A stretch of DNA of 32,968 nucleotides from Tetragenococcus sp. (lineage in GTDB: Bacteria > Bacillota > Bacilli > Lactobacillales > Enterococcaceae). Shown here piece after piece: positions 2,108 through 23,037 of this stretch (positions within the stretch are counted from its first letter, which is position 1; each line of letters starts with the position of its first letter). The stretch is from contig JAKDZT010000008.1 of assembly GCA_030462125.1 (NCBI GenBank), positions 1 through 32,968 on the forward strand. The letters run 5' to 3'. A program made the position numbers and the translations under genes. The notes beneath the pieces are model-generated. The model had not been told where the DNA came from, made no database searches, and worked only from the letters and a program-made list of their open reading frames with translations.

Positions 2108-2401
2108 ATGGATAAAGCACCGATTCAAGATATCGAACACGTCAGTCAAATTTATAAAGTACTAAGTGATGTGACACGCTTAAAAATAGTACTAGCAGTA
2201 AAAGAAGGCGAAAAAAATGTGACAACGATTGCTAATGAAGTAGGTATGGAACAATCTGCTGTTTCTCATCAATTGAAATTATTGCGCGACAACCGCGTAG
2301 TAAAAACGAGAAGGCAAGGCAAAGCGATATTATATAGTGTCGATGACGCCCACATTTTAGATATTCTAGAACAAACTTTTAAACACATTCATCACCGCTA
2401 A
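2108..2401 (+). CDS. ArsR/SmtB-family (CzrA-like) metal-responsive repressor
   Basis: 97 aa winged HTH (QSAVSHQLKLLRDNRVV...GKAILYSVDDAHILDIL). C-terminal D-x-H-x10-H-x2-H matches the alpha5 metal-site spacing of CzrA-type sensors. Confidence 0.85.
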   Translation: MDKAPIQDIEHVSQIYKVLSDVTRLKIVLAVKEGEKNVTTIANEVGMEQSAVSHQLKLLRDNRVVKTRRQGKAILYSVDDAHILDILEQTFKHIHHR

Positions 2402-2436
2402 AAAAGGACTTTCAAGCAGAAAGTTCTTTTTTTCTA
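2402..2436 (+). terminator. Rho-independent terminator after arsR-like gene
   Basis: AGGACTTTC-AAGCA-GAAAGTTCT followed by TTTTTTC. Confidence 0.8.
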
Positions 2437-2526
2437 AGTAGAATTTTGTTATGCTTAGACAAGTAATTTAGAAGTTTATGAAAGTGTTTCTAACCTGAGA
2501 ATTAGAGCGCTTTGAAATTTTTATTG

Positions 2527-2792
2527 AGGACAAAAGTTCGCCAAAAAAGTGTCCTATTTGATGATATAGGACAAAAAAGGTTCAAACTATTGTCCTATTC
2601 AGCGTTTTAGGACAAAAGGTAACTAAATTAATGTCCTATATTGGTGAAAAAAGGCATTTTAGAGGCTTTTATCACGATTATAGGACAAAAGTTGTTCGAA
2701 AGAATGTCCTATTCTGAACTATAGGACAAAATAATAGCAAAGTAATGTCCTATTCTGTGCTATAGGACAAAAGTTTGCCAAATTAATGTCCT
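2527..2792. repeat. Tandem array of six inverted-repeat units, AGGACA-N17-TGTCCT, 41-bp period
   Basis: AGGACA starts at 2527, 2568, 2609, 2682, 2723 and 2764. TGTCCT starts exactly 23 bp after each (2550, 2591, 2632, 2705, 2746, 2787). Periods are 41, 41, 73, 41, 41. Confidence 0.97.
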
Positions 2793-22843: not shown

Positions 22844-22889
22844 CGCGATTGAGAGATTTAATCATAATATGAAAAGTTTTATTCGAATC

Positions 22890-23037
22890 CTACCCTAGTT
22901 TTCCTGGTTTCTAGGGTCCCTATTCTGAACCTACCCTAGATTTTTTATTTCTAGGGTCATTATTTTGAATCTACCCTAGATTTCTAATTTCTAGGGTCCC
23001 TATTTTGAATCTACCTTAGATTTCTAATTTCTAGAGC
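22890..23037. repeat. Tandem array of four inverted-repeat units, ACCCTAG-N11/12-CTAGGGT, 40-41-bp period
   Basis: CTACCCTAG at 22890, 22931, 22971, and CTACCTTAG at 23011. CTAGGGT at 22911, 22951, 22991, and degenerate CTAGAGC at 23031. Confidence 0.96.

What the first reader, a model, noticed from the sequence alone, without database searches (positions are those of the whole stretch)
2527..2792. Array 1: six AGGACA-N17-TGTCCT units with an exact 41-bp register upstream of hom-thrB
All six units have exactly 23 bp from AGGACA to TGTCCT, and neighbouring units are exactly 41 bp apart except for one gap of 73. The arms are invariant and often extend to ATAGGACA/TGTCCTAT. The inner 17 nt (roughly AAAGTTNGCNAAANTAA) and outer 12 nt vary. 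Each right arm can pair inward with its own left arm (17-nt loop) or outward with the next unit's left arm (TGTCCTAT-TCTGAACT-ATAGGACA, 8-nt loop), so the array could form alternating or mutually exclusive hairpins, or offer phased protein-binding half-sites near 4 helical turns. It is not a CRISPR array: the repeats are 6-8-bp inverted arms and the intervals are far too short. I know no standard name for it; function is inference.
Basis: seen in the sequence. Interest (0 to 1): 0.78.

Follow-up and report, generated by a model that had tools for sequence, protein, structure and literature searches.

The report
Rigid 41-bp binding-site arrays in Tetragenococcus
Gaps between genes in the salt-loving food bacterium Tetragenococcus carry an undescribed family of strictly measured 41-letter DNA repeats; they stay at the same places while their letters change species by species, as if an unknown protein reads them.

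Summary
In detail: six AGGACA-N17-TGTCCT units at 2527-2792, spaced 41, 41, 73, 41, 41. It is one member of a Tetragenococcus-specific family (the nearest named genome is T. muriaticus DSM 15685). All nine genomes of the genus carry 41-bp arrays. No arrays were found elsewhere in the order, in viruses, phages or plasmids; no Rfam family matches.

Conserved are the geometry (unit 29 bp in all but two neighbouring pairs, spacer nearly always 12), CA...TG steps and, in several species, a 3 + 44-bp oriented core + 3 layout. The palindromic arms are not conserved: they fail to pair in three species and are lost in the most divergent one. Many arrays sit at the same intergenic positions across species (hom-thrB in five), yet their half-sites resemble other arrays of their own genome more than the orthologous array (p = 0.46 for any locus effect). 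Within a genome, extension of the palindrome is significantly avoided at fixed positions.

This favours double-stranded DNA sites for an unknown, cooperatively binding protein over RNA hairpins, REP/BIME elements or CRISPR. The reader protein was not found and nothing was tested experimentally. Novelty: new variant of a known kind (dispersed intergenic palindrome arrays).

The parts
2527..2555 (.). unit 1, AGGACA-N17-TGTCCT
   Evidence: exact match
2568..2596 (.). unit 2
   Evidence: exact match, 41 bp after unit 1
2609..2637 (.). unit 3
   Evidence: exact match, 41 bp after unit 2
2638..2681 (+). 44-bp central core, oriented and partly palindromic, with A/T tracts (GTGAAAAAAGGC...GCTTTTATCAC)
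   Evidence: 18 cores from six genomes align in one orientation: 18.6 identical of 44 per pair versus 14.4 +/- 0.16 for shuffled cores
2682..2710 (.). unit 4, 73 bp after unit 3
   Evidence: exact match
2723..2751 (.). unit 5
   Evidence: exact match
2764..2792 (.). unit 6
   Evidence: exact match
2447..2455 (+). extended -10-like box TGTTATGCT upstream of the array; would place the array in the hom-thrB leader (inferred)
   Evidence: conserved in eight of nine genomes at the hom locus, with or without the array; the consensus scan does not list it
2405..2433 (+). terminator-like hairpin plus T run after the ArsR-family gene
   Evidence: AGGACTTTC-AAGCA-GAAAGTTCT-TTTTTT read
2108..2401 (+). 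ArsR/SmtB-family regulator gene, left neighbour
   Evidence: NF033788
2848..4104 (+). hom, homoserine dehydrogenase, right neighbour
   Evidence: NF004976
4108..4983 (+). thrB, homoserine kinase
   Evidence: TIGR00191

Best explanation
The array is a double-stranded DNA nucleoprotein element: a row of alternately inverted half-sites (core CA/TG steps, 19 and 22 bp apart, repeat 41 bp or about four helical turns), typically three dimer sites, a 44-bp core, three dimer sites. An unknown Tetragenococcus DNA-binding protein occupies it cooperatively. Shown: the fixed geometry, the genus-wide occurrence at conserved intergenic positions, species-typical half-sites, and avoidance of longer palindromes. 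Inferred: that a protein reads it, that it binds along one face of the helix, and that its role is architectural or chromosomal rather than a regulon, because the neighbouring genes are unrelated housekeeping genes.
For: Half-sites located without fixing the spacing: 235 of 237 inward neighbours are exactly 29 bp; outward spacer 12 in 227, 13 in 9, 11 in 1, 43-44 in 14. The cross-species alignment needs no gaps and its invariant columns are CA/TG positions. The most divergent genome, G004, keeps CA-N17-TG-N20-CA eight and five times in a row although its arms are no longer palindromic. Arrays lie at orthologous positions, yet half-sites of orthologous arrays (0.619) are no more alike than non-orthologous ones (0.623, p = 0.46), while arrays within a genome are (0.705, 0.775): expected if a trans-acting reader changed specificity. 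The core is oriented. Spacings 41, 42, 73, 83 are near whole helical turns. No transposase or single regulon explains the loci.
Against: No reader protein was identified. The helical-phase argument rests on few independent numbers (83 = 41+42). Phased A/T curvature was tested and is not general (the signal was a harmonic artefact). Concerted evolution could also come from gene conversion or from local tandem amplification, which clearly occurs. The array folds strongly as RNA or single-stranded DNA.
Confidence: 0.5

Rival explanations
1. REP/BIME- or BOX-like dispersed hairpin repeats: originally mobile or selfish palindromes, now vertically inherited and amplified in tandem, acting, if at all, as RNA or single-stranded DNA hairpins at gene ends.
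For: Intergenic palindromic units of 29 bp in clusters; only 1 of 26 clusters with both neighbours known lies between divergent genes; recent tandem amplification to 9 units. Solitary perfect 29-bp palindromes of the same sequence, extended stem or T run, stand just after genes in another Enterococcaceae genome. Imperfect stems recall REPs, whose cleavage by RAYT needs unpaired residues (PMC3733652).
Against: No GTAG or CGTC tag; Y1 (IS200/RAYT-type) transposase absent from G003, which has many arrays; arms not paired in G005-G007 and lost in G004; unit length fixed despite free sequence.
Confidence: 0.25
2. RNA element: the arrays are transcribed (as in the hom-thrB leader) and fold into inward or outward hairpins that affect mRNA stability or attenuation.
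For: z = -8.6 for the window array as RNA; outward arms covary across species (60 cells changed on both sides versus 27 shuffled); probable position inside the hom leader.
Against: The covariation is between species and equally expected if one protein reads both half-sites. Within a genome the outward positions just beyond the arm and the inner inward positions pair less than chance. Many arrays lie between convergent genes; arms unpaired in G004-G007.
Confidence: 0.15
3. Neutral minisatellite: an old tandem repeat kept regular only by replication slippage and unequal crossing-over.
For: Long near-identical runs (9 units in L064, 9.6 in L145).
Against: Diverse units within most arrays, the same 41-bp period in all nine species with different letters, conserved loci and an oriented 44-bp core.
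Confidence: 0.08

Closest known systems
REP / BIME elements (GTAG-tagged repetitive extragenic palindromes with RAYT transposase)
   Same: Intergenic palindromic units of 20-40 bp, clustered in mosaic arrays near gene ends, imperfect stems, species-specific families.
   Different: No GTAG/CGTC tag, no consistent Y1 transposase, exact 29/12/41-bp geometry, positions conserved between species, arms dispensable in some species, oriented 44-bp core.
BOX elements of Streptococcus pneumoniae (from memory)
   Same: Modular intergenic element with a variable number of a middle repeat of about 45 bp in a Gram-positive coccus.
   Different: BOX has distinct boxA and boxC ends; here units are alike and no conserved ends were seen. 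No sequence comparison was made.
Operator, iteron or centromere-like site arrays (phased protein-binding sites; from memory)
   Same: Regularly spaced half-sites close to whole helical turns, array-wide regularity.
   Different: Dozens of chromosomal arrays next to unrelated genes, no adjacent reader gene, half-site letters drift by species.
Solitary 29-bp palindromes (A/G)GGACA(T/G)AAGTC-N5-GACTT(A/C)TGTCC(T/C) in another Enterococcaceae genome (G010)
   Same: Same length 29 and nearly the same letters as the AGGACATAAGTC half-site of G008 and T. muriaticus.
   Different: Single copies with perfect 11-12-bp arms, terminator-like, no 41-bp arrays seen.

Membership tests
REP/BIME (GTAG or CGTC REPs) | Tetranucleotide tag GTAG or CGTC at one end of the palindrome | tested here: not met
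   Units begin AGGACA and end TGTCCT; aligned flanks show no constant GTAG or CGTC
REP/BIME (GTAG or CGTC REPs) | Associated RAYT (Y1, IS200/IS605-like) transposase | tested here: not met
   PF01797 absent from G003 although it carries many arrays; other hits have the length of ordinary IS200-like genes and were not seen beside arrays
REP/BIME (GTAG or CGTC REPs) | Clustered intergenic imperfect palindromes of 20-40 bp | tested here: met
   29-bp units in intergenic clusters
CRISPR array | Near-identical direct repeats of 23-47 bp separated by unique spacers of similar length | tested here: not met
   Only short half-sites are constant and intervals are 12 and 17 bp
MITE | Terminal inverted repeats and target-site duplication; mobile copies at differing sites | tested here: not met
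   Flanks of clusters share nothing evident by eye and sites are largely orthologous between species; target duplications were not formally tested
Any catalogued RNA family (Rfam 15) | Match above the gathering score | tested here: not met
   No match over the array or related loci
BOX element | boxA-boxB-boxC sequence | not tested
   No BOX sequence was fetched for comparison
Phased protein-binding site array | Exact, conserved spacing of half-sites | tested here: met
   29 bp in 235 of 237 inward neighbours; spacer 12 in 227
Phased protein-binding site array | A protein that binds the sites | not testable with these tools
   Needs pull-down or EMSA

The most novel reading that the evidence does not exclude
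A genus-specific chromosomal nucleoprotein system: a dedicated protein co-evolving with dozens of fixed arrays (3 sites - core - 3 sites) that organise or mark the Tetragenococcus chromosome, whose recognition sequence was rewritten in each species while array positions and geometry stayed.
Probability: 0.3. Interest if true: 0.82.

Novelty: new variant of a known kind. Interest (0 to 1): 0.62.

Why it matters
Bacterial intergenic repeats are usually explained as mobile or RNA-hairpin elements. Here geometry and position are conserved while the letters change together within each genome. That is the pattern expected of a site family tracking its reader protein, and it gives a small, directly testable set of sites in an industrial food bacterium. 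It also shows that palindromic arms seen in one genome can be the less conserved part of such an element.

Tried and rejected
CRISPR, MITE and REP/RAYT (see membership tests). RNA hairpin as the common denominator: rejected because the arms do not pair in G005-G007 and are lost in G004. Intrinsic curvature by A/T tracts phased at 10.25 bp: looked strong, but that is a harmonic of the 41-bp repeat; the column-permutation control shows no general effect, only weak hints in G000, G005 and L145. Regulon idea: 30 neighbour genes of G008 are unrelated housekeeping functions. Polarity relative to chromosome position in G008: no clear pattern. Viral, phage and plasmid origin: no match. Literature: no paper found in the held library that describes the repeats; many subscription papers are not held. 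In one search the second helix was written one column out of register, so only helix 1 was used. The positive pairing signal at arm position 3 in G000 is not significant when loci are the unit of permutation.

Full report
OBSERVATION. The window holds six exact AGGACA-N17-TGTCCT units at 2527, 2568, 2609, 2682, 2723 and 2764. Spacings are 41, 41, 73, 41, 41. With up to two mismatches, shuffled windows contain 0.7 such matches on average. The genome from which the window comes (G000, 2.44 Mb, 398 contigs, 88% complete, 5% contamination) has 31 exact units and none of the reversed control pattern. They form about ten intergenic clusters. In every cluster that spans the middle there is exactly one longer gap of 73 bp (72 once), with two or three, once four, units on each side. 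So the element is 3 units, a 44-bp core, 3 units.

WHERE IT OCCURS. A scan of one genome per species for 85,462 species finds 41-bp double units in Tetragenococcus muriaticus DSM 15685, plus single hits in unrelated genomes that look like chance. Viral contigs, phages and plasmids give nothing. Among 398 genomes of the order only this genus has arrays; the one other match is a single weak hit. A sequence model built from 59 double units finds them in eight genus members at E <= 1e-5 and in one other family member of 97; the ninth, most divergent member (G004) matches weakly. G004 carries 41-bp arrays of 9.6 and 5.8 copies with no indels. The genus is inferred from T. muriaticus, whose contig lengths equal those of G002.

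WHAT IS CONSERVED. Letters differ by species: TC-AGGACATARNTY in G008 and T. muriaticus, AT-AGGACAWWANTT in G000, NGGACA in G003, AGCACA or ACNNCA types in G005-G007. Geometry does not. When half-sites were located one by one without fixing their distance, 235 of 237 inward neighbours were exactly 29 bp long, and the outward spacer was 12 bp in 227 cases, 13 in 9, 11 in 1 and 43-44 in 14. The alignment of double units across species has no gaps, and its invariant columns are C, A, T, G of the CA/TG steps. In G004 the arms are no longer palindromic, but CA-N17-TG-N20-CA is kept eight times in one array and five times in the other.

THE CORE. Eighteen 44-bp cores from six genomes align in a common orientation with 18.6 identical bases per pair against 14.4 +/- 0.16 for shuffled cores, and are partly palindromic. 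In the four strongly polar arrays of G000 the orientation of the core agrees with the polarity of the units. In G008 and T. muriaticus the middle is instead a 13-bp spacer (units 42 bp apart) or a stretch with a single half-site (83 bp = 41 + 42).

SAME PLACES, NEW LETTERS. Flanking genes show that 10 of the 12 G000 arrays scored lie at the same intergenic position as an array in another species. The hom-thrB array is present in five species and absent in G005-G007. Yet half-sites of orthologous G000-G008 arrays are 0.619 identical, non-orthologous ones 0.623 (permutation p = 0.46), while different loci within one genome reach 0.705 and 0.775. This is concerted evolution: either a trans-acting reader shifted its specificity or arrays exchange sequence within a genome. 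Local tandem amplification is evident (L064, L065, L078) but does not by itself explain agreement between distant loci.

PALINDROME BREAKING. Within genomes the two halves of a unit match less than expected at fixed inner positions: in G008 positions 9-10 (21 and 7 Watson-Crick pairs against 35.6 and 22.4 expected), in G000 positions 7-8 (11 and 15 against 21 and 24.4). The same holds outward, at spacer positions 3-4. With loci as the unit of permutation and both strands treated alike, the effect stays: inward 0.217 against 0.440 (G008), 0.205 against 0.438 (T. muriaticus), 0.294 against 0.482 (G000), 0.364 against 0.543 (G003); outward 0.240 against 0.453, 0.285 against 0.489, 0.155 against 0.356 and 0.264 against 0.420. 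So pairing beyond about 6-8 bp is avoided on both sides of each half-site. This could protect against cruciform or hairpin cleavage, or mark unit polarity; the data do not decide.

WHY NOT RNA. The window array folds well as RNA (z = -8.6) or DNA (z = -7.6), as any row of inverted repeats would. Outward arms covary across species, but that is equally expected when one reader changes both half-sites. The arms do not pair in G005-G007, and additional pairing is avoided. Many arrays lie between convergent genes. RNA roles at single loci remain possible: at hom-thrB a TGTTATGCT box conserved in eight of nine genomes lies upstream of the array, so the array is probably transcribed there.

WHY NOT KNOWN REPEAT FAMILIES. 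No Rfam family matches. REP/BIME elements are defined by GTAG-type tags and RAYT transposases (PMC3733652); the tag is absent and G003, rich in arrays, has no Y1 transposase. A likely relative was found: in G010, another genus of the family, solitary 29-bp palindromes such as AGGACATAAGTC-ATTTC-GACTTATGTCCT (11-12-bp arms, T runs in some) stand just after genes. The Tetragenococcus unit may descend from such a palindrome; this is inference. A pattern search for the perfect palindrome in 301 genomes of the class found only scattered single copies outside the genus.

MECHANISM. The best-supported reading is a double-stranded DNA scaffold: alternately inverted half-sites every 19 and 22 bp, on average two helical turns, occupied cooperatively by an unknown protein, three dimers on each side of a core. 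Neighbour genes are unrelated housekeeping genes, which favours a chromosomal or architectural role over a regulon. The reader protein is unknown, and phased curvature, first suggested, failed its control. I give this reading 0.5.

Noticed in passing
window 22885-23034: A second tandem array of four units, about ACCCTAGA-N9-TCTAGGGT, with a 40-41 bp period and unrelated letters, in another intergenic region; it may be a different family of similar period.
   Followed up: partly
L142:1503, L146:1500, L150:1513, L154:1500: Solitary 29-bp near-perfect palindromes (A/G)GGACA(T/G)AAGTC-N5-GACTT(A/C)TGTCC(T/C) just after genes in another Enterococcaceae genome, some with T runs, terminator-like.
   Followed up: partly
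G000 contig C308 (L133:389-540): An array with T. muriaticus/G008-like half-sites in the window's own assembly (5% contamination); may be a contaminating contig or a second half-site type.
   Followed up: no
L145:1204-1597 and L143:1467-1705: In the most divergent genus member, 41-bp arrays have become non-palindromic directional minisatellites that keep CA-N17-TG-N20.
   Followed up: yes
L107 and L110 (genome G006): A further half-site type (ACAACA/AGCACA) coexists with the AGCACA/ACCACA type in one genome.
   Followed up: no
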